A stretch of 64,000 nucleotides of DNA, taken from assembly GCA_026075535.2 (NCBI GenBank), contig AP026542.1:7254001-7318000 (forward strand). Direction: 5' to 3'. Position numbers and translations under genes: made by a program. This DNA comes from Tricholoma matsutake. Lineage: Eukaryota > Basidiomycota > Agaricomycetes > Agaricales > Tricholomataceae. Below, one piece after another: positions 6,721-58,219 of this stretch. Position 1 is the first letter of the stretch. Every line of letters begins with the position of its first letter. The notes under the pieces are model-generated. The model was not told where the DNA came from and made no database searches. It saw nothing but the letters and a program-made list of their open reading frames with translations.

Positions 6721-7957
6721 ATGTCCTCAAAATACTCGCTACTCCAGCCCATTGCGTAACTCACGGCTAAGCTTGAAATTCTTTTCAGCACAAAACTCTT
6801 CTCAGTGCGTAATTCTAACAAGCCAATTGTTTGCATTTCTCACTGGTTTGATTAGAGGAGGTCCGAGTTCAGATTCTAACTCCATTTTCTCTTCTGCAGA
6901 ATCGGCATGGGACCATGTGTTCACAGATATAGATGAAATGCCTCCGCTTCCTTCGACAATGCGTAATCACCTTCGGTCTTCGCCATCAAGACCCCGCCGG
7001 CCGCAAGCTATGACTGCTCGTGAAATCAATGCCTTTGATGAAATGTTCAACATGATTTTCGATGCTGTTGCTGAGGAGAAGACTGCATCTAATTCAGGGG
7101 CTATAGATGATTCCAACATTGGTGTAGGCAGAGGCGGCATCAGTGACCTTTTTGGAAAGCTTCGGAGGCATTCAAAAAAACTGAAATGGACCACGGAGTC
7201 GGATGAACTGCTGGATCGTAAGAAGGAAGCCATGGATATGTGTGAGTCCGACCAGCAACTGCTGGAATGGGCCCTGCTCCACGTTTTCCAGGAGTCGGAG
7301 CGTTACGAAAAAGCAGCACGCCAGGCCATCTCTGAAGCCGCAAAATCTGGGGCTCCCCAAGAGTTACCGATGCTGCAGCCTCCTACATACCCTCACTTGG
7401 TGGCACTTCTTATGCGTGCTTTCCGTGACAAGTACAATGACCCTAATCTCGCTTTAGCGATATTTGATCATGCTCGGCATCTCTCAATAGCTTCATACGT
7501 CTTTGGTTGTTCGACACACGCGTATAACGAACTAATCGAAACTCGTTGGAAATGTTTCCACGATGTAAAAGGCGTGCATGATGCACTGGAAGAGATGGCG
7601 GTTAACGGAGTAGACGTTGATTCGCGGACACGGAAATTAGCTGAAACAGTCAGGAGAGAGATTGGGCAGCGAAATTTGTGGACTGAAGAGTCTGAACTTG
7701 GCAGTGGGGAGGTCTGGAACATGCTGGCCAGGATTGATAAGTTGCTTGCTAAACCTGCCTCATCCAAAAAAGCGAACTACCCACGGAAGTCAATTAGGTG
7801 GGACGAGTGGAAGGCCCTACCTCTTGCGGACAATGCGGATGATAACTGGGGTTTTGATCAGTGGAAAAGGCCAAAACGAAGGAAAGTTCAACGTGGCGCT
7901 AGCGAACTGACGTCAAAAACGGCGCGAAACTCGACATTCGGTTTGACGGAAGCTTAA
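6721..7957 (+). CDS. Mtf2/Nam1-like mitochondrial protein
   Basis: The reading frame from 6856 to the TAA at 7955-7957 encodes a soluble, helical protein. The central part (LLDRKKEAMDMCESDQQLLE through NELIETRWKCFHDVKGVHD) matches my memory of the Mtf2-like domain found in fungal proteins related to yeast Mtf2/Nam1. Those factors bind mitochondrial RNA polymerase and act in mitochondrial transcript processing and translation. The basic C-terminus (KRPKRRKVQR) would suit RNA contact. The open frame has no ATG near its 5' end. Joining an upstream exon 6721-6755 through a 100-nt GT-AG intron gives 378 residues in phase, starting MSSKYSLLQPIAGG. That start is the weakest part of the model, because a typical presequence is missing, and another upstream exon is possible. 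Family call moderate, mitochondrial role inferred. Confidence 0.7.
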
Positions 7958-31300: not shown

Positions 31301-34300
31301 ATTGTATGCCCTCACTGCCTGTCCATAACCGCTTTGAAGTCTTGTCAGTTGAATCCCCGGAGAATGAATCCATTTCTGTGACTGCTCCCCTCTCTGACCC
31401 TTCAAAGTTGGCTAAAGACATACCTGCTCTCCCCATCTCTCCTTCTACTCCACGTCCCAAAATTAAATCATGGGAGCGTAAACTACCACGCAAGTATATT
31501 GTGGCATCCACTCCCTCTGCACATTCCTTGAACCTAGCCATCGAACTGCAGACAACCGACACTGGACAGATACTCGGTGTCTCTGTGCTCCTGGACTCTG
31601 GTGTGACTGGTCTCTTCATCAATTCCCATCTGGTACAACAACATTGCCTAAATACTCGCTCACTCTCACGTCTGATACCTGTATATAATGTGGATGGATC
31701 CCCAAATGAAGCTGGTGCCATCCGAGAGGTTGCAGACCTGGTTCTCCATTACAAAGATCACAGTGAGCATGCCCTTTTTGCTGTCACTCAATTAGGAAAG
31801 CAAAAGGTGATTTTGGGATATCCATGGCTTCGAGACCATAACCCAGAGGTCGACTGGCATACCGGGGAGGTTACCATGAGCTGATGTCCATCCTGCTGTC
31901 GGACATGTTTCACAGAAGCCAGGCAAGAATGTCATGGACAGAAGGCGGCGATACAACGTACTCAGAAGTGTCGTGCTGGACCCCTGCCTATACCTGAAGT
32001 GGAATTGGAAGGGGTTCCTGATCTAATGCTGGACTCGGATGATGATGATGAGGACCCAGAGGAAGTGGAGGAGGGTGATCGGATCTTCTACACTGCGATT
32101 CACTCATCGCATGAGGTGTGTGCCACATTGAACATATCCCAACGCCTCGCCAAGGCCTTCCACAAAAACAACGCTGCTAAATCCTCTACTAACTCCTTAC
32201 TCCCTCATCTCCATGAGTTTGAAGACATGTTCTCCAAGGAGTCATTTGACTCTCTTCCTGCGTGCAAGCCATGGGATCACGTGATTGAACTCACCCCCGG
32301 TGCAACCCCTTCATCCTGCAAGGTCTATCCTCTCTCTCCGGAAGAACAACGGCAGCTTGACCAGTTCATCGATGAGCACCTGGCCTCTGGACGTATTCGA
32401 CCATCGAAGTCACCCATGGCCTCTCCCTTTTTCTTTGTCAAGAAGAAGGATGGCTCACTTCGACCGGTTCAAGACTACAGAAGGCTCAACAACATCATGG
32501 TCAAAAATCGCTATCCACTACCCCTCATCTCCGAACTCGTAAACCAGCTCCGTGGAGCCCGATACTTCACCAAGCTCGATGTCCATTGGGGCTATAATAA
32601 TGTGAGGATAAAGTGGAAGGCAGCCTTTTGTACCAACCGTGGTCTTTTTGAACCGCTTGTCATGTTCTTTGGCCTTACTAATAGCCCCGCCACCTTTCAG
32701 ACCATGATGAACGACATCTTCCACGACCTCATCCTCAAAGGCGTTGTCTGCATCTATCTCAACGACATCCTCATCTTCACTCGCATGGTTGAAGAGCACC
32801 GTTGCATCATGCACCTCGTCCTAGAGCGACTTCGATGGTACAAACTCTACCTTCATCAGGACAAATGCGAGTTTGAAAAGACCAAGATTGAGTACCTCGG
32901 CCTGATTATCTCAGAGGGTCAAGTGGAGATGGATCCTATCAAGGTAAACGGGGTCACAGCTTGGCTGACGCCCATGAACAAGAAGGAGGTGCAGTCTTTC
33001 CTGGGCTTCATCAATTTCTATCGGTGTTTTATCAAGGATTTCTCACATCATGCATGACCACTGTTCGACTTGACAGGAAAGGAGGCATGGAGGTGGGATA
33101 ATGCACAACAGGAGGCGTTCGAAAAGCTTAAGGAGATGGTCACTTCCGCTCCGATCCTTACCTTTGCTGACAATTTGCGTCCTTTTCATGTAGAAGCCAA
33201 CAGTTCTGACTTTGCGACGGGCGCCGTGTTGTCTCAGCAGTCTCCGGAGGACCAGAAGTGGCATCCTGTTGCATTCTACTCCAAAAGCCTTAGTGCTGTA
33301 GAGCAAAACTACGAGATCTATGACAAGGAGATGTTGGCGATAATGCGTGCGCTTGAGGAGTGGCGACACTTCCTCGAGAGTGCCCAACACAAGGTGGAAA
33401 TTTGGACGGATCACAAGAATCTTGAGTACTTCATGATGGCCAAGAAATTGAACCGTCGTCAAGCTCATTGGTCCCTGTATCTATCTAGATTCGACTTCTC
33501 CTTGCACCACTGTCCGGGTCGCAGCATGGGGAAGACCGATGCCCTATCCCGACGTGCAGACCATGGGGATGGCAGTGGTGACAACCAAAACATTGTGCTG
33601 TTGCAGCCAGACCTGTTCACCATTCGGGCACTGGAAGGCATTGCACCCCAGGGCGAGGAGCGGGACATCCTACGTGACATTCATCGCGCAAACTGTAGTG
33701 GTTTACATGAGGATGTTGTTGCCCGAGCTGTTAAAGAACTGAGGAAGGGATCAACCCTTTCCTTACGTGCGGCAGAGTGGGCTGAAAAGGAGGACTTGTT
33801 GTATTTCAGGGATCGCATCTATGTTCCCAATGACCCAGACCTTTGCCGGCGCATCATATCCCAACACCATGACTCACAGATTGCTGGCCACCCCAGATGC
33901 TGGAAGACCTTGGAGCTCACCTCACGGAACTATTGGTGGCCACAAATGTCACGGCTCATTGGTCAGTATTGTCGCACTTGTGACCTTTGCTTACGCACCA
34001 AGGTTCCTCGTCGCAAGCCTATTGGCGAGCTACACCCTCTTCCTGTTCCAGAGAGTCGTTGGGATGTCATCAGCATCGACTTTGTGGTGGAATTGCCAGA
34101 GTCAAACAGGTTTGATGTGGTGATGTGCACAGTTGACTCAGTGGGAAAACGCGCTCACTTCATTCCCACTCACACCACTGTCAGTGCCCTAGGTGCCGCT
34201 CAACTCTACCTCCACCACGTGTGGAAATTACATGGACTTCCTGGTGCCTTCCTCTCAGATTGTGGCCCTCAGTTCATGGCAGAGTTCACTCGTGAGCTGT

Positions 34301-35163
34301 ACCAACTCCTGGGGATCAAACTCCTCGCTTCAACTGCTTATCACCCACAAACTGATGGCCAGACGGAGCGAGTCAACCAGGAACTGGAGCAGTACATCCG
34401 CCTCTTTGTCAATGAACACCAGGACGATTGGGACGATCTCCTTCCTTTGGCTGAGTTTGGATACAACAACCATGTCCATGCTTCCACTCAACAGACCCCT
34501 TTCCTCTTAGACACTGGATGACATCCACGCATGGGATTTGAACCTCGCCAAACTCCCTCACACATCGAGACAGTGAATGAGTTCACAGAACACATGAGGG
34601 ATAGCTTGGAGGAGGCAAGGGCAGCCTTAGCAAAGGCGAAGGATGACATGGTGCGATTTTACAACCAACGCCACTCCCCAACCCCTCAGTACAAGGTTGG
34701 TGATCGAGTTTATCTTGACTCCAGTGACGTCTCCACTACATGTCCATCCAAGAAACTCGCTCATCGCTTCTTGGGACCTTTCCCCATTGTCAAGTGCGTT
34801 GGAATGCATGCCTATTGTCTATGCCTCCCAGCCTCCATGTCCAGACTCCATCCCGTCTTCCATGTCATCAAATTGCTTCCAGCTCCCCCAGATTCGTTCC
34901 CGGGATGCCATTCACACCCACCACCACCACCTACAGTGATCGAGGGAGAACCCCAATATGAAGTCGAGTCAATCTTGGACAGCCGTTTACGTCGAGGAAA
35001 ACTCCAGTATTTGGTACATTGGAAGGGTTATGGGTATGAGGAGAACTCATGGGTCGAAGAGTCTGACATAAAGGCCCCTCGGTTAATCAAGGAATTCCAC
35101 CGATGGCACACTGCTGCACCGCGTCGCATTCAAGTCATGGACTTTGGTCGTATGCGATTTTGA
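31297..35163 (+). pseudogene. Gypsy copy A pol: protease, RT, RNase H, integrase, chromodomain
   Basis: Protease centre LLDSGVTGLFINS; reverse transcriptase with FFVKKKDGSLRPVQDYR and CIYLNDILIF; RNase H (FCVEANSSDFATGAVLSQQ-type block; here FHVEANSS); integrase with HHCC (HHDSQIAGHPRCWKTLELTS ... CRTCDLC) and DDE residues in SIDFVVELP, LSDCGPQF, QTERVNQE; chromodomain YEVESILDSRLRRGKLQYLV...WEE-like tail near the C-terminus. In-frame TGA codons lie at 31,882-31,884, 33,055-33,057 and 34,519-34,521. The RT catalytic box reads YLND instead of YLDD, and about four residues expected between VRIK and WKAAF are missing. The enzyme is therefore predicted dead. The first and third TGA, the YLND and the gap are shared with copy B. 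Confidence 0.9.
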
Positions 35164-41630: not shown

Positions 41631-41811
41631 TAAGTAGTTATGTGTTGGATTATATAATCTGTCACTGCTTAATCAGTGCTTAACAGACCATAGTTTGCAC
41701 ATGCACACAAGTGATGTGATAGTTGTAGCAATCCGTGTCTGGTTATATGGTATATTTGTTCTGTTGAACCCTATAAGACCTGATAGCTCAGTTGGTCAGA
41801 GCATCTGGTAT

Positions 41812-42035
41812 TGTTAAACAGAAAAGATGACCAGACTGGGGATTGAACCAAGGCCCTCCTGGACATATACCAGATGCTCTGACCAACTGAGCTATCAGGT
41901 CTTATAGGGTTCAACAGAACAAGGATACCATATAACCAGACACGGATTGCTACAACTATCACATCACTTGTGTGTGTGTGCAAACTATGATCTGTTAAGC
42001 ACTGATTAAGCAGTGACAGATTATATAATCCAACA
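41812..42035 (-). mobile_element. Solo LTR of the same TRIM family nested in the TRIM 5' LTR
   Basis: 224 bp in reverse orientation, from the inverse of TGTTGGATTATATAATC at 42,035 to TGTTAAACAG at 41,812. Flanked by the 5-bp duplication GGTAT (41,807-41,811 and 42,036-42,040). It carries its own full tRNA-like block. Insertion fell in the anticodon loop of the host LTR's tRNA-like sequence. Confidence 0.9.
41829..41901 (-). other. tRNA-like sequence inside the nested solo LTR
   Basis: Reverse-strand copy of the 73-nt tRNA-like block, also followed by a TTTT run. It differs from the 3' LTR copy mainly in the T arm (one base change weakening the stem). Confidence 0.8.
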
Positions 42036-42299
42036 GGTATATGTCCAGGAGGGCCTGGGTTCAATCCCCAGTCTGGTCATCTTTTCTGCATTCCTACAGG
42101 TTATGGGCCCTGGCACTTCTGTCAGATTACCTGAGCAGATTAAGATGTGCCAGATTAAGGGGGTGTGTTGGATTATATAATCTGTCACTGCTTAATCAGT
42201 GCTTAACAGACCATAGTTTGCACATGCACACAAGTGATGTGATAGTTGTAGCAATCCATGTCTGGTTATATGGTATCCTTGTTCTGTTGAACCCTATAA

Positions 42300-42372
42300 G
42301 ACCTGATAGCTCAGTTGGTCAGAGCATCTGGTATATGTCCAGGAGGGCCTGGGTTCAATCCCCAGTCTGGTC
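42300..42372 (+). other. tRNA-like sequence (Pol III-type promoter) inside TRIM 3' LTR
   Basis: 73 nt that fold as a cloverleaf. Acceptor stem GACCTGA/TCTGGTC (one U-U mismatch), D arm GCTC-AGTTGGTCA-GAGC, anticodon stem TCTGG/CCAGG with 7-nt loop TATATGT, and T arm CTGGG-TTCAATC-CCCAG. It contains an A box (TAGCTCAGTTGG) and a B box (GGTTCAATCCC). A TTTT run, the usual Pol III terminator, starts four nt after its end. The base before the would-be anticodon is A rather than the universal U33, so it is probably not a working tRNA. Function as a Pol III promoter is inference. Confidence 0.82.
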
Positions 42373-42953
42373 ATCTTTTCTGCATTCCTACATTATGTAG
42401 AAACAATGTAAAGTTAGTATATATAAAAACAAAGAAAGAAAAAAAGATACATATGGCGTGCCCCCATTTCACTTCCTTGTTGTATTTGCTGGGCTTGTTC
42501 ATTGTAGGAGTATATGTTGATGTTGCCTTTGTCATTGTTGGACTGCTCTGTTTGTAGACTGAGTAAAGATTTACAATAGTGAAAGACAAAAAACTTACCA
42601 ATGAGCTCAGAAGGCATTGTCTGTCATTGTTGTTCATGTTGTCATTGCTTGGCAAATGTCAACCAGGTTTGTCAGCATTTCCTTTTTTGGGAGGTGTGTC
42701 CAACTCAATCTCTGTGTCGCTTACCTGTGAATTGTGTCACAGTGTCATACTTCTCATGTGTGTCATTCTTTGTTTTTCAATATGTGTGTCAAGTACTGTA
42801 TATCCTCCAGTCACAATGTATTTTTGTAGAGTTGGGTTCAGTTCTCAGTTCAAGCACCCCTTGAACCTGAATTGAACCTAAAGTTCAGTTCTAGGTTCAC
42901 AAAAAACCTTGGAGAACCAGACTGAACTGAACTGCAGCAGCACTATGCAGGTG

Positions 42954-44559: not shown

Positions 44560-47500
44560 TCAGTGGAATTCCTTGACTAACTGAGGGGCGTTTACATCGG
44601 ACTCCTTGACCCATGAGTTCTCCTCATACCGATAACCCTTCCAGTGCACCAAATACTGGAGTTTTCCTTGACACAACTGGCTGTCCAAGATTGACTTGAC
44701 TTTGTACTGGGGTTCTCCCTCAATCACTGTAGGCAGCGATGGTGGATGTGAATGGAGGATCTGGGGGAACTGGAAGGAGTTTGATGACATGAAAGACTGG
44801 GTGGAGTCTGGACATGGAGGCTGGGAGGCACAGATGATAGGCATGCATTCCAATGCACTTGACAATGGGGAAAGGTCCCAAGAAGCGATGAGCGAGTTTC
44901 TTGGATGGACGTGTAGTGGAGACGTCACTGGAGTCAAGATAAACTCGATCACCAACCTTGTACTGAGGGGTTGGGGAGTGGCGTTGGTTGTAAAATCGCA
45001 CCATGTCATCCTTCGCCTTTGCTAAGGCTGCCCTTGCCTCCTCCAAGCTATCCCTCATGCGTTCTGTGAACTCATTCACTGTCTCGATGTGTGAGGGAGT
45101 TTGGCGAGGTTCAAATCCCATGCGTGGATGTCATCCAGTGTCTAAGAGGAAAGGGGTCTGTTGAGTGGAAGCATGGACATGGTTGTTGTATCCAAACTCG
45201 GCCAAAGGAAGGAGATCGTCCCAATCGTCCTGGTGTTCATTGACAAAGAGGCGGATGTACTGCTCCAGTTCCTGGTTGACTTGCTCCGTCTGGCCATCAG
45301 TTTGTGGGTGATAAGCAGTTGAAGCGAGGAGTTTGATCCCCAGGAGTTGGTACAGCTCACGAGTGAACTCTGCCATGAACTGAGGGCCACAATCTGAGAG
45401 GAAGGCACCAGGAAGTCCATGTAATTTCCACACGTGGTGGAGGTAGAGTTGAGCGGCACCTAGGGCACTGACAGTGGTGTGAGTGGGAATGAAGTGAGCG
45501 CGTTTTCCCACTGAGTCAACTGTGCACATCACCACATCAAACCTGTTTGACTCTGGCAATTCCACCACAAAGTCGATGCTGATGACATCCCAACGACTCT
45601 CTGGAACAGGAAGAGGGTGTAGCTCGCCAATAGGCTTGCGACGAGGAACCTTGGTGCATAAGCAAAGGTCACAAGTGTGACAATACTGACCAATGAGCCG
45701 TGACATTTGTGGCCACCAATAGTTCCGTGAGGTGAGCTCCAAGGTCTTCCAGCGTCTGGGGTGGCCAGCAATCTGTGAGTCATGGTGTTGGGATATGATG
45801 CGCCGGCAAAGGTCTGGGTCATTGGGAACATAGATGCGATCCCTGAAATACAACAAGTCCTCCTTTTCAGCCCACTCTGCCGCACGTAAGGAAAGGGTTG
45901 ATCCCTTCCTCAGTTCTTTAACAGCTCGGGCGACAACATCCTCATGTAAACCGCTACAGTTTGCGCAACAAATGTCACGTAGGATGTCCCGCTCCTCGCC
46001 CTGGGGTGCAATGCCTTCCAGTGCCCGAATGGTGAACAGGTCTGGCTGCAACAGCACAATGTTTTGGTTGTCACCGCTGCCATCCCCATGGTCTGCACGT
46101 CGGGATAGGGCATCGGTCTTCCCCATGCTGCGACCCGGACAGTGGTGCAAGGAGAAGTCGAATCTAGATAGATACAGGGACCAATGAGCTTGACGACAGT
46201 TCAATTTCTTGGCCATCATGAAGTACTCAAGATTCTTGTGATCCGTCCAAATTTCCACCTTGTGTTGGGCACTCTCGAGGAAGTGTCGCCACTCCTCAAG
46301 CGCACGCATTATCGCCAACATCTCCTTGTCATGGATCTCGTAGTTTTGCTCTACAGCACTAAGGCTTTTGGAGTAGAATGCAACAGGATGCCACTTCTGG
46401 TCCTCCGGAGACTGCTGAGACAACACGGCGCCCGTCGCAAAGTCAGAACTGTTGGCTTCTACACAAAAAGGACGCGAATCGTCAGCAAAGGTAAGGATCG
46501 GAGCGGAAGTGACCATCTCCTTAAGCTTTTCGAACGCCTCCTGTTGTGCATTATCCCACCTCCATGCCTCCTTTCCTGTCAAGTCAAACAGTGGTCGTGC
46601 ATGATGTGAGAAATCCTTGATAAAACACCGATAGAAATTGATGAAGCCCAGGAAAGACTGCACCTCCTTCTTGTTCATGGGCGTCAGCCAAGCTGTGACC
46701 CCGTTTACCTTGATAGGATCCATCTCCACTTGACCCTCTGAGATAATCAGGCCGAGGTACTCAATCTTGGTCTTTTCAAACTCGCATTTGTCCTGATGAA
46801 GGTAGAGTTTGTACCATCGAAGTCGCTCTAGGACGAGGTGCATGATGCAACGGTGCTCTTCAACCATGCGAGTGAAGATGAGGATGTCGTTGAGATAGAT
46901 GCAGACAACGCCTTTGAGGATGAGGTCGTGGAAGATGTCGTTCATCATGGTCTGAAAGGTGGCGGGGCTATTAGTAAGGCCAAAGAACATGACAAGCGGT
47001 TCAAAAAGACCACGGTTGGTACAAAAGGCTGCCTTCCACTTTATCCTCACATTATTATAGCCCCAATGGACATCGAGCTTGGTGAAGTATCGGGCTCCAC
47101 GGAGCTGGTTTACGAGTTCGGAGATGAGGGGTAGTGGATAGCGATTTTTGACCGTGATGTTGTTGAGCCTTCTGTAGTCTTGAACCGGTCGAAGTGAGCC
47201 ATCCTTCTTCTTGACAAAGAAAAAGGGAGAGGCCATGGGTGACTTCGATGGTCGAATACGTCCAGAGGCCAGGTGCTCATCGATGAACTGGTCAAGCTGC
47301 CGTTGTTCTTCCGGAGAGAGAGGATAGACCTTGCAGGATGAAGGGGTTGCGCCGGGGGTGAGTTCAATCACGTGATCCCATGGCTTGCACGCAGGAAGAG
47401 AGTCAAATGACTCCTTGGAGAACATGTCTTCAAACTCATGGAGATGAGGGAGTAAGGAGTTAGTAGAGGATTTAGCAGCGTTGTTTTTGTGGAAGGCCTC

Positions 47501-48355
47501 GGCGAGGCGTTGGGATATGTTCAATGTGGCACACACCTCATGCGATGAGTGAATCGCAGTGTAGAAGATCCGATCACCCTCCTCCACTTCCTCTGGGTCC
47601 TCATCATCATCATCCGAGTCCAGCATTAGATCAGGAACCCCTTCCAATTCCACTTCAGGTATAGGCAGGGGTCCAGCACGACACTTCTGAGTACGTTGTA
47701 TCGCCGCCTTCTGTCCATGACATTCTTGCCTGGCTTCTGTGAAACATGTCCGACAGCAGGATGGACATCAGCTCATGGTAACCTCCCCGGTATGCCAGTC
47801 GACCTCTGGGTTATGGTCTCGAAGCCATGGATATCCCAAAATCACCTTTTGCTTTCCTAATTGAGTGACAGCAAAAAGGGCATGCTCACTGTGATCTTTG
47901 TAATGGAGAACCAGGTCTGCAACCTCTCGGATGGCACCAGCTTCATTTGGGGATCCATCCACATTATATACAGGTATCAGACGTGAGAGTGAGCGAGTAT
48001 TTAGGCAATGTTGTTGTACCAGATGGGAATTGATGAAGAGACCAGTCACACCAGAGTCCAGGAGCACAGAGACACCGAGTATCTGTCCAGTGTCGGTTGT
48101 CTGCAGTTCGATGGCTAGGTTCAAGGAATGTGCAGAGGGAGTGGATGCCACAATATACTTGCGTGGTAGTTTACGCTCCCATGATTTAATTTTGGGACGT
48201 GGAGTAGAAGGAGAGATGGGGAGAGCAGGTATGTCTTTAGCCAACTTTGAAGGGTCAGAGAGGGGAGCAGTCACAGAAATGGATTCATTCTCCGGGGATT
48301 CAACTGACAAGACTTCAAAGCAGTTATGGACAGGCAGTGAGGGCGTACAATTCAC
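44560..48355 (-). pseudogene. Gypsy copy B pol
   Basis: The long open stretch 47,653-45,131 (840 codons) covers RT, RNase H and integrase. The protease lies in 48,355-47,768 and the chromodomain in 45,009-44,560. Two TGA codons are shared with copy A (complement of 47,768-47,770 and 45,131-45,133). The RT box is also YLND and the same residues between VRIK and WKAAF are missing. Copy-specific damage: integrase TEQVNQE where copy A has TERVNQE, a deletion frameshift near 44,750 before the chromodomain, and a TGA at 44,560-44,562 where copy A has CGA (FHRW). It lacks the extra RT stop of copy A (HARPLFD is intact). Confidence 0.9.
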
Positions 48356-52780: not shown

Positions 52781-53104
52781 TGTTAAATGTATGATTCACC
52801 ATCTCTCTATTTTACTTCTATCCTACTTCTATTCCATGTCCTATCACTTGTAGTTACACTCATGGGCACTTAGAGTAGTTTCCATCCACCTTGTGTTTAT
52901 CACTGTTTGTTTCACAGTATGTAGACTGCAGAGTCCGGAGTTTTGCACTCTTCAGTTGCTCACTCTGGACTCCAGGTACTGTACTCCTTATTGTCTCATA
53001 TAATAATTAGTTGCTCACTCTGGACTCCAGCTGTTCAGTCTATCTGAGTCTCCCTTCACAGTTGCTAGGTTAAACTGCACTAAAGGCAACCTCAGACTTT
53101 AGCA
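52781..53104 (+). repeat. Copia 5' LTR
   Basis: 324 bp. It differs from the 3' LTR by one 4-bp insertion. Confidence 0.95.
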
Positions 53105-53588
53105 GGTTATGGGCCCTGCACCCTAGTGACTTCAAATCAACTCCAATCACTCTGAAACCACTCTCAGTGAATTCCCTGACCTCAATAACCCCCCCAGCAC
53201 CTACAATTTCCATTCTGTGTGCCTTGGTTGTTGGTCAACAAGCACTTGTTGGAGTTATCAGACTTTTCCCACCAAATTTGACGTTCCTCGTTGCACACTG
53301 GTCGGATCGCTTAGTCCTTTTTCTAGGACACTTGGGGACATACCCCCCACCTCCCGTTAACACCGATAGTCGAACGCGCCCACGGTTCCCGCTCAGCGCT
53401 CATCGCGAATCTGAAACACCAAACACTCAAATTACACCCTTCACTCAAATCATCTCGCACGCACCCAATTCAAACACTATTGTCGAACGGATTCAACAGG
53501 CAGATTCGGCACCTTCCCTTCCCTCGAATGCGCCTACGCTTACCCCAATCATGCCCACACTCGCTTCTCAGTGCATCGTTCTGCAAAC

Positions 53589-56500
53589 ATGTCCAACTCA
53601 TCACCTAATTTCCCAAAGCTCAACAATCGCAATTATGCCTCCTGGAAGGATCAGATGGCTGCCTGGGGACGTAAACAGGGGTGGTGGAGGGTTGTGACTG
53701 GTGATATACAGGAGCCTAGCCCTGGGGATGCAGAGGCACATTGTTTGTGGTTTCAACTAGTGGATAAGGGGGCTGGGGACATTTATTTGCATATTGAGGA
53801 TGACCAGAAGCATCACCTGGGTGGGGTTTTTGACGATCCAAAGAAGATGTGGGAGCTGTTGGAGAGAGGGAATCAATCAAAGAAGCCTGGTATGCACTTC
53901 AATACCTATGATGACTTATTCTCTGTTAGGAAACAAGAGAGTGAGGGCCTGGAAGGTCTCATAGCTCGCATTTCTGAGAAGGTCCGTGCTATCAAGGATC
54001 TCCATCCCTCTGACTTCACCCTCGATGACCTTGACAATGAACTTCACTCCATGGCTCTCATCCGTGCCCTTCCCAATGAATATTCCTCATTCGTCTCTTC
54101 CCTCATGCTCATCGACAATCTTGATCGCTCTACTATTCATGAAGCGTTCAGGAATGAGAAATTAAACCGTGAACGTCGTTCTGGGTTCTCCAGTGACTCC
54201 ACATCTGGTACTGCTCTAGCCACCTCTTCAGTTATCGGTTTACTCTGCGACTTTTGCGGATTTAAAGGTCATACCCTACCTCAGTGCAGGAAATTCCTTG
54301 CTGCAAAGATGGAGGCATGTAAACCCAAGCGGTCTCGCATTGCTAACACCTCTACAACCACATCCTCCACATCACCTTCCTCTCCTGAAAGCGCAGCTGT
54401 TGCTACTGCCGTTTCAGTCACTGAGTTTGCTGGGAATGCAAGTTATCGTTCCTCTCAACCCACTCCTACTTCAACCACAACTTACCTTTGGAATGCAGAC
54501 ACAGGCACCACGTCTCATATGATGCCTCATCGCAACTGGCTTCGTGATTATACCCCTTTTCGTGTCCCAATTCGTCTTGCAGACAATACTATTGTCTATT
54601 CTGAAGGTGTAGGAAGTGTGGTGTTTAAACCGATTATTGCAGGAAAAGAATTGAGGGCTGTCGAGTTTACTCATGTTTTGCATGTCCCCGATCTCCAGAA
54701 CAATCTCCTCTCAGTCTTGTATTTACCCCGTCAACATGGTATTGACATTTATATCTCTGCCAATGAACTTGCGATGATATTCTTACTTGATGGTGAATGC
54801 CTTTTCATGGCTCCCATTGATGAGAACAATTCCGCATTTCTTGCTGGGACTACTGAGGTGTTCACCAAGCATGCTCACTGCTCCATATCCACTCTTCCTG
54901 CAGACTGCAATCTCTGGCATCGTCGTTTTGCTCATCATGACTACAATGTTGTCAATAAGATTGTGAAGGATGAGCTGGTGACTGGTATGCGTATTAATAT
55001 GCATGCCAAACCAGACCCTATATGCGAACCTTGTTTAGCTGGCAAGATGAATGCACATCCATTCCCCACTTCCTCTAGTCGTGCTGCCAATCCCCTTGAT
55101 CTCATCCACTCCAATTTGCATGGTCCCTTCAAAACACGTACTCACTCTGGGTATCATTACTGGATCACTTTCATTGATGACAATACTCATTTCCACTCCA
55201 AATACTTCCTTCATACCAAAGATCAGGCATTTAATGCATTCAAGTTATTCAAAGCGAAAGCTGAGAATCACTGGAATCACAAAATCAAGGCTATGATTGA
55301 TGACAAGGGAGGCGAGTACATGTCTAATGAATTCCTTGCATTCACGGATCAGTGTGGGATTGAACGTTTGCATACTGTTTGCAATCAACCTCAACAGAAT
55401 GGCATTGCTGAACGAGCAAACCGCAGTATTGAGGAACACACTACTGCCATGCTTTATGAAGCTGGTTTACCTCCTTCTTTCTTGGGTGAGGCTGTTGATG
55501 CATACATCACAGTCCAGAACAAGTGTCCCACTCATTCCCTCTCAGAGAAAACCCCCTTTGAACTCTGGCATAAGCGTAAACCAGATGTCTCAAATCTCCG
55601 AGTTTGGGGTTGTGCTGCATATGTTCACATCCAGAAGGATAAGTGTACTGGGATTGGCTCTCACATGGAGAAGTGTGTTTTCATTGGCTACCCTGAGGGT
55701 TACAAAGCCTGGAAATTCTACAATCCTGTGACCAAGCATACTGTGATCTGTGAACGCGCTGAATTTGATGAGCACTATTTTCCTGGTCTCAAACACACTT
55801 GGAATGAGCCACCTGTTGATCCCTCTTCCCCTCTCATCATGTCCAAGTATCTTACACCTTTGACGGTTCCTGATCTTAGTGACATTGATCCTGGACCTGT
55901 ACAGGCAATTCTTCCTTCTGGTGTAACTGATCTTGATGATGATCCTGTTCCATCTCAATCTCCTGCTCATGCTCCTACTCCTCCTGCTTCTTCTCCTCCT
56001 GCTAATACTACCCCTCACACTCCCACTCCTCCTACTCAGACACTTGCTGTATCTCCACCTCAGACCCCAATTTCATCTCCTCCTCCATCACTTCCTCCAC
56101 TTTTAGAGCGTCGAGCTGCTAATCCACGCAAGAATGCTGGATTGCCACCATGGGCTTGGAATGAGCCCCTTGCTCCAATCCCAGCTCCACAATTCGATCA
56201 ACCTTCATCTGATGATGAGTCTGGTCCAGTTGTTGGTGATGGTTCGGATTCTAGTATTGATCTTGCATTATCTACTCATTATGCGGACCCACAGTCATTC
56301 AAGGAGGCTATGAAGTGCTCAGATGCGCGAAAATGGCAGGAGGCAGCAAATGCAGAGATGAACAATCATTTTGAGAATGGGACTTGGGATTATGTGGAGT
56401 TACCTCCTGGTGCAAAGGTAGTTGGATGCAAATGGGTTTTTAACCTCAAGCATAATGCTGATGGCTCCATTGAGCGTTACAAAGGTTGGGTTGTGGCTAA

Positions 56501-57857
56501 GGGTTTCACCCAATGCCCTGGTTTTGAATATGCAGAAGACGCTATGTTCTCCCCAGTTTATCGTCCTGCTTCACTTCGGCTAATTCTTGCATTGGCTGCA
56601 AGGAAAGACCTCCACCTTCGCTCTCTTGACATCTCCCATGCTTTCTTACTTGGGAAAGAACTTGAGGAAGTCATCTACATGCGCCAACCCAAGGGTTTCC
56701 ATCAAGGTAACCCAAACACAGTTTGTCTACTGCGTAAACCTCTCTATGGGTTGAAACAGTCTGCTCGCAACTGGAATGCTCGCCTCCATGAGGTATTGAC
56801 AGCTATGGGATTTACACGCTGTGAAGCAGACCGTGCTGTTTATATTTACATACGAGGTGAAGTCAGGGTAATTGTTCCAATCTTTATCGATGACATTACT
56901 CTTGCTGGGACTTCTACTTCTGCCATTGACAAGGTAGTTGAAGATCTCAAATCCCATTTCAAACTTTGTGATCTTGGTCCTACTCAATTCCTACTTGGCA
57001 TCCACATTACTCATGACCTCACAAATCACACCATCTCCCTCTCCCAACGTCAGTACATCGTTGATGTGCTTGAACGTTTTGGTATGTCAGATTGCAAACC
57101 TGTCTTGGCTCCCATGGATCCCTCCCTTTCATTGACTTCTGACATGTGCCCCAAAACAGAGGAAGATGTTGCAGAAATGCGCAATGTTCCTTATTTGGTT
57201 GCTGTTGGGTCTTTGATGTACCTTGCCACCACCACCCATCCGGACATTGCTTATACAGTTGGTGTACTTGGTCATTTCAACCACAACCCTCGTCCTCATC
57301 ATTGGCTTGCAGTCAAGCATCTACTTCGCTATCTCAAGGGTACTATGGACTACAAACTAGTCTATGGACCTGATGAGGATGGTAGTGAGTTATTCACAAC
57401 TTACACTGATGCTGACCATGGTGGTAACAAGGATAATGGTCGCTCAACTGGTGGCTATTTGACTTGTGTCGGTGGAGGTGCAGTTGACTGGCAGAGTTGG
57501 TTACAACCTTTTGTGATGCTTTCCACCACAGAGGCTGAGTTTGTTGCTGCAGTAGAGGCTGGAAAGGAAATCAAGTGGACTCGCAGCATTTTACAGGAAT
57601 TTGGATATCCTGTTGATTGTTCGTCCACTCTCTTCATTGATAACCAGTCCGCTCTCACTGTTTCCAAAAACCTGGAGCACCATGGACGAATGAAGCACCT
57701 TGATCTCAAGTACTACTGGCTATGCGATGAAGTTGAAGCTGGCACCATTTCCCCTGTCTATATCCCCACCACTGACCAACTTGCCGACATTCTTACCAAG
57801 GCACTACCTCGTGTAACGGTGGAAAAATTCCAGACTCTTCTTGGTTTAGAGGTGTGA
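53589..57857 (+). CDS. Copia gag-pol polyprotein, intact frame
   Basis: 1,422 codons from the ATG at 53,589 (MSNSSPNFPKLNNRNYASWK). The frame is open a few codons further upstream but without an ATG. Order: gag (about 1-210), CCHC knuckle CDFCGFKGHTLPQC (about 220), protease WNADTGTTSHM, integrase HHCC (LWHRRFAHHDYN ... CEPCLAGK), integrase core with FIDDNTHF, DDKGGEYMS and PQQNGIAERANR, a Pro/Ser-rich spacer, reverse transcriptase with GCKWVFNLKHNADGSIERYK and FIDDITLAGTS, and RNase H (YTDADHGGNKDNGRSTGGYL, STTEAEFVAA). It would drive copy-and-paste transposition. Oddity: the first DDE aspartate, normally in IHSDLHGP, is Asn here (IHSNLHGP), which should cripple the integrase. Confidence 0.95.
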   Translation: MSNSSPNFPKLNNRNYASWKDQMAAWGRKQGWWRVVTGDIQEPSPGDAEAHCLWFQLVDKGAGDIYLHIEDDQKHHLGGVFDDPKKMWELLERGNQSKKPGMHFNTYDDLFSVRKQESEGLEGLIARISEKVRAIKDLHPSDFTLDDLDNELHSMALIRALPNEYSSFVSSLMLIDNLDRSTIHEAFRNEKLNRERRSGFSSDSTSGTALATSSVIGLLCDFCGFKGHTLPQCRKFLAAKMEACKPKRSRIANTSTTTSSTSPSSPESAAVATAVSVTEFAGNASYRSSQPTPTSTTTYLWNADTGTTSHMMPHRNWLRDYTPFRVPIRLADNTIVYSEGVGSVVFKPIIAGKELRAVEFTHVLHVPDLQNNLLSVLYLPRQHGIDIYISANELAMIFLLDGECLFMAPIDENNSAFLAGTTEVFTKHAHCSISTLPADCNLWHRRFAHHDYNVVNKIVKDELVTGMRINMHAKPDPICEPCLAGKMNAHPFPTSSSRAANPLDLIHSNLHGPFKTRTHSGYHYWITFIDDNTHFHSKYFLHTKDQAFNAFKLFKAKAENHWNHKIKAMIDDKGGEYMSNEFLAFTDQCGIERLHTVCNQPQQNGIAERANRSIEEHTTAMLYEAGLPPSFLGEAVDAYITVQNKCPTHSLSEKTPFELWHKRKPDVSNLRVWGCAAYVHIQKDKCTGIGSHMEKCVFIGYPEGYKAWKFYNPVTKHTVICERAEFDEHYFPGLKHTWNEPPVDPSSPLIMSKYLTPLTVPDLSDIDPGPVQAILPSGVTDLDDDPVPSQSPAHAPTPPASSPPANTTPHTPTPPTQTLAVSPPQTPISSPPPSLPPLLERRAANPRKNAGLPPWAWNEPLAPIPAPQFDQPSSDDESGPVVGDGSDSSIDLALSTHYADPQSFKEAMKCSDARKWQEAANAEMNNHFENGTWDYVELPPGAKVVGCKWVFNLKHNADGSIERYKGWVVAKGFTQCPGFEYAEDAMFSPVYRPASLRLILALAARKDLHLRSLDISHAFLLGKELEEVIYMRQPKGFHQGNPNTVCLLRKPLYGLKQSARNWNARLHEVLTAMGFTRCEADRAVYIYIRGEVRVIVPIFIDDITLAGTSTSAIDKVVEDLKSHFKLCDLGPTQFLLGIHITHDLTNHTISLSQRQYIVDVLERFGMSDCKPVLAPMDPSLSLTSDMCPKTEEDVAEMRNVPYLVAVGSLMYLATTTHPDIAYTVGVLGHFNHNPRPHHWLAVKHLLRYLKGTMDYKLVYGPDEDGSELFTTYTDADHGGNKDNGRSTGGYLTCVGGGAVDWQSWLQPFVMLSTTEAEFVAAVEAGKEIKWTRSILQEFGYPVDCSSTLFIDNQSALTVSKNLEHHGRMKHLDLKYYWLCDEVEAGTISPVYIPTTDQLADILTKALPRVTVEKFQTLLGLEV

Positions 57858-57894
57858 TTTCAGCGATTTTGAGAGTTGCTTTATCAAGGGGGGG

Positions 57895-58214
57895 TGTTAA
57901 ATGTATGATTCACCATCTCTCTATTTTACTTCTATCCTACTTCTATTCCATGTCCTATCACTTGTAGTTACACTCATGGGCACTTAGAGTAGTTTCCACC
58001 TTGTGTTTATCACTGTTTGTTTCACAGTATGTAGACTGCAGAGTCCGGAGTTTTGCACTCTTCAGTTGCTCACTCTGGACTCCAGGTACTGTACTCCTTA
58101 TTGTCTCATATAATAATTAGTTGCTCACTCTGGACTCCAGCTGTTCAGTCTATCTGAGTCTCCCTTCACAGTTGCTAGGTTAAACTGCACTAAAGGCAAC
58201 CTCAGACTTTAGCA
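57895..58214 (+). repeat. Copia 3' LTR
   Basis: 320 bp, preceded by the polypurine tract. Confidence 0.95.
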
Positions 58215-58219
58215 GCAGA

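What the first reader, a model, noticed from the sequence alone, without database searches (positions are those of the whole stretch)
41643..42392. Miniature LTR retrotransposon whose LTR carries a complete tRNA-like Pol III cassette
The 227-bp LTR contains a 73-nt cloverleaf-capable sequence with A box, B box and a TTTT terminator. The element has PBS, PPT, a 67-bp interior and a perfect TTATG target duplication. Plant Cassandra TRIMs carry 5S RNA in their LTR (established knowledge); a tRNA-like unit in a fungal TRIM LTR would be an analogous but distinct design. It would let the LTR be transcribed by Pol III while using a copia-type primer site. I do not know a described family like this, but I could not search.
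Basis: partly seen in the sequence, partly recalled or inferred. Interest (0 to 1): 0.88.

Follow-up and report, generated by a model that had tools for sequence, protein, structure and literature searches.

The report
Matsutake miniature retrotransposon carrying tRNA-like promoter
A tiny non-coding retrotransposon of the matsutake mushroom carries a tRNA-like sequence in both of its ends; this kind of element (Helenus) was described in 2024, though not in this mushroom, and it may explain why the genome of a sister species was reported to hold hundreds of odd tRNA-Ile genes.

Summary
At window 41643-42392 there is a 521-bp TRIM (227-bp LTR, 67-bp interior, 227-bp LTR; TSD TTATG). Its 5' LTR is split by a nested, inverted solo LTR of the same family (TSD GGTAT). 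Each LTR holds a 74-nt tRNA-like block (Rfam tRNA, 56.3 bits) with A box, B box and a T4 run. It is a family, not a chance capture: 286 LTR-start and 238 tRNA-core sites in the genome (controls 19 and 1), a tRNA call in 75 of 79 sampled LTRs (shuffled: 0 of 1580), frequent 5-bp TSDs. A second complete family (F2) and pieces of two more (F3, F4) carry nearly the same block; F1 and F2 are 93% identical inside it, 57% outside. The genome is Tricholoma matsutake. The novelty claim fails: Kojima 2024 described this design as Helenus / TRIMp3, Agaricomycetes included. New here: the Tricholoma families, a plausible Copia partner, a likely but untested explanation of the 275 tRNA-Ile(TAT) genes reported in T. 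bakamatsutake, and a mostly conserved weak T4 run suggesting Pol III read-through. Pol III transcription itself is inferred.

The parts
41638..41642 (.). outer target site duplication TTATG, left copy
41643..41811 (+). 5' LTR, first part (LTR positions 1-169), starts TGTTGG
41777..41811 (+). tRNA-like block of the 5' LTR, first 35 nt (cut in the anticodon loop by the nested insertion)
41807..41811 (.). nested TSD GGTAT, left copy
41812..42035 (-). nested inverted solo LTR of the same family, 224 bp, end type TTTAACA; 8 substitutions of 224 from the outer 3' LTR
41828..41901 (-). tRNA-like block of the nested solo LTR
   Evidence: 48 bits
42036..42040 (.). nested TSD GGTAT, right copy
42041..42098 (+). 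5' LTR, second part (LTR positions 170-227), ends CTACA
42099..42165 (+). 67-bp interior
42099..42114 (+). presumed primer-binding site GGTTATGGGCCCTGGC, identical over 16 nt to that of a Copia element at G000:C5:8023393
42157..42165 (+). polypurine tract AAGGGGGTG
42166..42392 (+). 3' LTR, 227 bp, TGTTGG...CCTACA; 3 substitutions of 227 from the 5' LTR
42300..42373 (+). tRNA-like block, 74 nt
   Evidence: 56.3 bits
42307..42318 (+). A box TAGCTCAGTTGG (exact in 73 of 79 LTRs)
42352..42362 (+). B box GGTTCAATCCC (the 12-mer GGGTTCAATCCC, one base longer, is exact in 61 of 79 LTRs)
42376..42379 (+). T4 run, candidate Pol III terminator; longest T run of the LTR tail is 4 in 73 of 79 rows, 3 in 4 and 6 in 2
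   Evidence: mends the narrower count
42393..42397 (.). outer target site duplication TTATG, right copy

Best explanation
A Helenus-type TRIM (TRIMp3) of Tricholoma matsutake. SHOWN: LTR-interior-LTR architecture with 5-bp TSDs, many solo LTRs, and a tRNA-like block in 75 of 79 sampled LTRs. SHOWN: the block is almost unchanged between two families whose LTRs otherwise differ. INFERRED: Pol III starts near the block of the 5' LTR, guided by its A and B boxes, reads through the weak T4 run there, and stops, or mostly stops, at the same T4 run in the 3' LTR. If it starts about 10 nt upstream of the block, this gives a genomic RNA of about 384 nt (R about 90 nt, U5 13 nt), plus abortive RNAs of about 90 nt from each LTR, solo LTRs included. 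INFERRED: a tRNA primer binds GGTTATGGGCCC, and proteins of a Copia element reverse-transcribe and integrate the RNA. The block most likely works as a promoter, not as a tRNA: the four families read have A in place of U33 and a U-U mismatch in the acceptor stem.
For: Genome-wide LTR-start motif 286 sites, control 19. tRNA-block core 238, control 1. 55 of 101 motif starts have an exact 5-bp duplication at a CA end, 3-4 of them at odd lengths. 39 of 83 delimited LTRs are single LTRs with a TSD directly after them, and 4 more if the LTR ends 1 nt later. 12 elements with two LTRs and a TSD, including the window; 1-9 substitutions between their LTRs. tRNA call in 75 of 79 LTRs. F1 against F2: block 68 of 73 aligned positions identical, outside 87 of 152, Fisher p 1.2e-8. 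Copia at G000:C5:8023184 shares the 16-nt PBS, a near-identical PPT (AAGGGGGAG) and the LTR termini TGTTG...CTACA. The 17-mer spanning LTR end and PBS lies 2645, 2645, 2645 and 2948 bp upstream of 4 of the 150 scored Copia RT hits, same strand; none on the opposite strand within 7 kb. In yeast Pol III in vitro, T4 gives no detectable release and T6 is efficient (PMC9278858, passage).
Against: No RNA or Pol III occupancy data. The isolated F1 block is not an unusually stable fold (z -0.20; MFE not a cloverleaf). Within F1, shared polymorphisms are depleted in the block only weakly (at least 5 copies: 0/74 against 10/140, p 0.016; at thresholds 3, 4, 6 p is 0.15, 0.06, 0.05). Singleton substitutions are equally frequent inside and outside. 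Two of 79 LTR tails have T6 (L046, L076 minus strand), so T4 is not invariant. The Copia partner's LTR is otherwise unlike the TRIM's, and a different Copia inside the window has a similar PBS and PPT. I could not find the host initiator-Met gene, so primer complementarity is not verified. The absence of other T4 runs inside the element is no more than shuffles give (dinucleotide P(0) 0.49 for F1, 0.27 for F2).
Confidence: 0.9

Rival explanations
1. The block is a passenger: the TRIM is transcribed by Pol II from U3 like an ordinary TRIM, and the tRNA-like block is kept for another reason or shared by recent exchange between families.
For: No transcription data; the TATA-like palindrome GATTATATAATC at the LTR start could serve Pol II; Cassandra-like TRIMs with TATA boxes instead of the 5S promoter exist in some Asteraceae (PMC10853983, passage).
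Against: The block is 93% identical between F1 and F2 while the rest, including the putative U3, is 57% identical. The A box is exact in 73 of 79 LTRs. Differences among F1-F4 fall in the D loop, the variable region or a wobble-tolerant pair, apart from position 44, which breaks a pair in F4.
Confidence: 0.12
2. These are real tRNA-Ile(UAU) genes that the element spreads, supplying functional tRNA.
For: ARAGORN of 79 LTRs tRNA-Ile(TAT); the tRNA covariance score is as high as for some host tRNAs.
Against: Anticodon loop TATATGT has A, not U, at tRNA position 33, and a U-U pair at block positions 5 and 69 (acceptor stem) is shared by the four families read. Kojima reports isotype disagreement in many Helenus families.
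Confidence: 0.04
3. A SINE or tRNA gene jumped by chance into one LTR copy (a single capture), as in the reader's own refutation list.
For: Kojima proposes SINE insertion into an LTR as the ultimate origin of such families.
Against: A tRNA is called in 75 of 79 sampled LTRs, and the block recurs in a second complete LTR family and in pieces of two more.
Confidence: 0.01

Closest known systems
Helenus (TRIMp3), Kojima 2024, PMC10886601
   [quoted passage not shown] PBS and PPT; 5-bp TSDs in fungi; PBS resembling its iMet anticodon-loop type (by recall of the tRNA); Copia-type affinity; several families per genome; inflated tRNA counts
   Different: Tricholoma is not in its Table 1 or main text; Ile(TAT)-like block, whereas its Table 2 lists Thr, Ser, Ala, Pro, Val and suppressor types; its supplementary sequences and Repbase could not be compared
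Cassandra (plants; 5S-RNA-bearing TRIM)
   Same: Small-RNA-gene promoter inside the LTR of a TRIM; transcript from LTR cassette to LTR cassette (for Cassandra as stated; here inferred); tandem copies occur
   Different: tRNA-like, not 5S; fungal; no 5S match in the window
Copia element at G000:C5:8023184-8027695 (T. matsutake)
   Same: 16-nt PBS, PPT class, LTR termini TGTTG...CTACA
   Different: 209-bp LTR without tRNA-like block and otherwise unlike; carries a reverse transcriptase
tRNA-derived SINEs (SINE2)
   Same: tRNA-derived promoter, short, non-coding
   Different: No LTRs, PBS or PPT; LINE-dependent (established knowledge)

Membership tests
Helenus | short TRIM with two LTRs and no coding interior | tested here: met
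   521 bp; of 12 two-LTR elements 11 have interiors of 59-70 bp and L061 has an insert
Helenus | tRNA-derived sequence with A box and GGTTC B box in the LTR | tested here: met
Helenus | 5-bp TSD (fungal Helenus) | tested here: met
Helenus | PBS complementary to a tRNA anticodon loop, mostly iMet (fungal Helenus) | tested here: inconclusive
   PBS GGTTATGGGCCC fits by recall of iMet, but the host iMet gene was not found
Helenus | PBS-region similarity to an autonomous Copia | tested here: met
   not unique to one Copia family
Helenus | sequence homology of LTR to a published Helenus consensus | not testable with these tools
Helenus / TRIMp3 | Pol III transcription | not testable with these tools
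   by its author not validated experimentally for Helenus either
Cassandra | 5S rRNA-derived promoter in the LTR | tested here: not met
   Rfam finds tRNA only, over the whole window
functional tRNA-Ile(UAU) gene | U33 and fully paired acceptor stem | tested here: not met
   A33 and a U-U acceptor pair in F1-F4

The most novel reading that the evidence does not exclude
The element depends on a deliberately weak Pol III terminator. The usual T4 lets a fraction of polymerases read through the 5' LTR to make genomic RNA and terminate at the identical site in the 3' LTR. Terminator strength would thus partition output between a roughly 90-nt tRNA-like RNA and the transposition template, and the promoter cassette would be held constant while the surrounding LTR turns over between families.
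Probability: 0.35. Interest if true: 0.5.

Novelty: new member of a known kind. Interest (0 to 1): 0.3.

Why it matters
It adds Tricholoma to the hosts of tRNA-bearing TRIMs, with a second complete family and pieces of two more in the same genome. It offers a simple explanation of a published oddity: 277 of 365 tRNA genes in T. bakamatsutake called tRNA-Ile, 275 with anticodon TAT (PMC10627285). 238 such cores exist in T. matsutake. Two host Ile-AAT genes were read here, the same number as the non-TAT Ile genes reported there, but the tRNA search scored only 63 of 11061 candidates, so that match may be chance. tRNA annotation of these mushroom genomes should mask the family.

Tried and rejected
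Novelty of the design: rejected after reading Kojima 2024. Chance capture in one copy: rejected by 75 of 79 LTRs. Targeting of host tRNA genes, as for yeast Ty1: ARAGORN on the 117 partly overlapping loci L002-L118 gave 132 Ile-TAT calls and three others, at L016, L081 and L101, where LTRs of the family lie, so no support. Self-targeting: one clear nested insertion (the window); the inverted pair in L076 shares one TSD and looks like a single aberrant copy, so I make no claim. Selection against internal T runs: not significant. Stable cloverleaf fold: not supported for F1 by z-score. Host iMet gene: three patterns, written from recall, gave no gene; the second was answered only on its third try, and 5 of the 38 sites of the last were read, 0 of 5 tRNA. 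Origin of the block: the F3 block and host tRNA-Ile-AAT share 19 of 19 nt in the D-arm region but 51 of 74 overall; only 9 host tRNAs were available, so the parent tRNA is undecided. Polymorphism test within F1: reported at all four thresholds because only one reaches p below 0.05. A first count that no LTR tail had more than T4 was wrong: its pattern missed two T6 tails.

18 of 101 motif starts had no recognisable LTR end, and 4 of 83 delimited LTRs under 215 nt were left out of the alignment. One of the 79 kept rows (L081:1298) is not an LTR beyond its first 22 nt and was not removed. Three pairs share upstream flanks (L039/L054, L042/L043, L053/L055) and are probably duplicated copies of one insertion; they were not removed.

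Full report
WHAT IS THERE. The window holds a terminal-repeat retrotransposon in miniature. Outer TSD TTATG (41638-41642 and 42393-42397); 5' LTR 227 bp; interior 67 bp (42099-42165); 3' LTR 227 bp (42166-42392). A 224-bp inverted solo LTR of the same family sits in it (41812-42035) with its own TSD GGTAT, and the insertion point is in the anticodon loop of the tRNA-like block. The two outer LTRs differ at 3 of 227 positions; the nested one differs from the 3' LTR at 8 of 224.

THE tRNA-LIKE BLOCK. ARAGORN finds tRNA-Ile(TAT) at 42300-42373 and, on the minus strand, 41828-41901. Rfam scores these 56.3 and 48 bits (cut-off 29), the only Rfam hits in the window at gathering scores. A and B boxes are intact and a T4 run follows at 42376-42379. 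Two features argue against a translating tRNA: A instead of U at tRNA position 33, and a U-U pair in the acceptor stem.

THE GENOME. G000 has 161,040,721 bases in 13 contigs, exactly the published Tricholoma matsutake assembly, Sample A / TMA_r1.0 (PMC11595502 Table 1 passage; PMC10627285 passage). The lengths of contigs 12 and 13 equal chromosomes 12 and 13 in PMC10211490 (passage).

THE FAMILY (F1). The 17-nt LTR start motif with up to 2 mismatches occurs 286 times, against 19 for the reversed control. These and the window gave 101 motif starts; 83 could be delimited and 79 of at least 215 nt were aligned. Of the 101 starts, 55 have an exact 5-bp duplication at a CA end, though 3-4 of these lie at odd lengths and may be chance. 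39 of 83 are single LTRs with a TSD directly after them, 4 more if the LTR ends 1 nt later. Twelve elements, including the window, have two LTRs and a TSD; interiors are 67 bp (four, including the window), 70 bp (six), 59 bp (one) and one long insert-bearing case, and LTR pairs differ at 1-9 positions besides gaps. ARAGORN calls a tRNA in 75 of 79 LTRs (74 Ile-TAT) and in 0 of 1580 shuffled LTRs. The longest T run in the LTR tail is 4 in 73 of 79 rows, 3 in 4 (one of them not a true LTR end) and 6 in 2 (one search had missed the two). LTR 3' ends come in three main types (CATTCCTACA, CATTCCTAACA, TTTAACA), which would be U5 on the transcription model.

MORE FAMILIES. Reading the tRNA hits showed other Ile-TAT-like blocks with different surroundings. 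F2 has 21 matches spanning a 154-nt query from its LTR. One complete element was read (L141: LTRs 266 and 259 bp, interior 144 bp, TSD AATGG, the same GGTTATGGGCCC start of the interior). F3 (L142, L143) and F4 (L144) were seen only as LTR pieces. F1 and F2 agree at 68 of 73 aligned block positions but at 87 of 152 outside it (p 1.2e-8). Across F1-F4, one sequence each, the block varies at 5 columns: two in the D loop, one in the variable region and two stem positions, one of which (44) breaks a pair in F4. This is what a retained promoter cassette would look like; recent exchange of the cassette between families is not excluded.

WITHIN-FAMILY TEST. Substitutions shared by at least 5 copies are absent from the block (0 of 74) and present outside (10 of 140), p 0.016; thresholds 3, 4 and 6 give 0.15, 0.06 and 0.05. 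Singletons are equally dense inside and outside, as expected if individual insertions decay neutrally and only source elements are under selection. This is weak support.

PARTNER. The 17-mer spanning LTR end and PBS has 94 exact sites (935 within one mismatch); 25 of the 94 are at F1 copies known and a few other calls. Compared with all 150 scored Copia reverse-transcriptase hits (of 2524 candidates), 4 sites lie 2645, 2645, 2645 and 2948 bp upstream on the same strand, with none on the opposite strand within 7 kb; the remaining 65 are unassigned. The ends of one of these (C5:8023184) show a 209-bp LTR with the same termini TGTTG...CTACA, the same 16-nt PBS and PPT AAGGGGGAG. A different Copia in the window (LTRs 52781-53105 and 57895-58215) has a PBS that departs after GGTTATGGGCCCTG and a similar PPT, so the assignment is suggestive only.

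MECHANISM. Stated for Cassandra and proposed for Helenus (PMC10886601): a Pol III promoter in the LTR drives the element, for Cassandra from the cassette of the 5' LTR to that of the 3' LTR. Here each LTR usually has a T4 run a few bases past the block, so polymerase must pass the first one. In yeast in vitro T4 gives very weak pausing and no detectable release, T5 intermediate, T6 efficient release (PMC9278858, passages). Of 9 host tRNA genes read, 7 have a T run of 5 or more within 40 nt, whereas 2 of 79 F1 LTR tails have one. This fits a leaky terminator, but basidiomycete Pol III has not been tested, n is small, and the absence of further T4 runs in the element is not more than chance.

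KNOWN OR NEW. Kojima 2024 (PMC10886601; parts 1-4 of 6 and the figures-and-tables section read) defines Helenus: tRNA-bearing TRIMs in Pucciniales, three Agaricomycetes, animals and one plant, fungal ones with 5-bp TSDs, mostly iMet anticodon-loop PBS and Copia affinity, inflating tRNA counts. Tricholoma is not mentioned in its main text. In my searches of the held library none of the listed titles and abstract starts names such an element in Tricholoma; the lists were capped and many papers are not held. So: new families of a known kind.

A PUBLISHED ANOMALY. PMC10627285 (section read) reports 365 tRNA genes in T. bakamatsutake, 277 of them tRNA-Ile and 275 with TAT, calling it more than the expected number. 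In T. matsutake I count 238 block cores (control 1), and 41 of the 53 tRNA-model hits reported are F1 or F2, 9 host, 3 unassigned (the search scored only 63 of 11061 candidates). The same kind of element is the likely cause, untested in that genome. Against a simple reading: another paper gives 275 tRNAs in all for T. matsutake Sample A and 287 for the same T. bakamatsutake strain (PMC11595502 Table 2), so counts depend on the pipeline.

Noticed in passing
L076:768-1236: Inverted pair of F1 LTRs separated by just the 9-bp PPT sequence, with a single 5-bp TSD GTGCT outside: looks like a palindromic product of aberrant reverse transcription or self-integration.
   Followed up: partly
L061:1012-3649: F1 tandem (LTR-interior-partial LTR) with an insert of roughly 2 kb before a second LTR tail-interior-LTR, TSD CATTC.
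   Followed up: partly
L081:773-1319: Rearranged F1 copy of 547 bp with TSD AGTAC whose left end is not the LTR and whose right end is a 22-bp palindrome of the LTR start.
   Followed up: partly
window 52781-58215: Copia element with 325-bp LTRs 98.8% identical, a 1428-aa open frame and TSD GCAGA; a different family from the candidate partner.
   Followed up: partly
window 31999-34521 (+) and 45131-47653 (-): Two stretches with reverse transcriptase (RVT_1), RNase H and integrase zinc-binding domains, of Gypsy type.
   Followed up: no
window 6752-7957: ORF matching the Mtf2 family (Pfam 1.2e-59), probably a host gene.
   Followed up: no
G000, 35 sites of GGGCTCATAACCC: Repeated 13-mer; the two of these sites that were read (L148, L149) carry similar flanking sequence and are not tRNA genes, probably another repeat family.
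   Followed up: no
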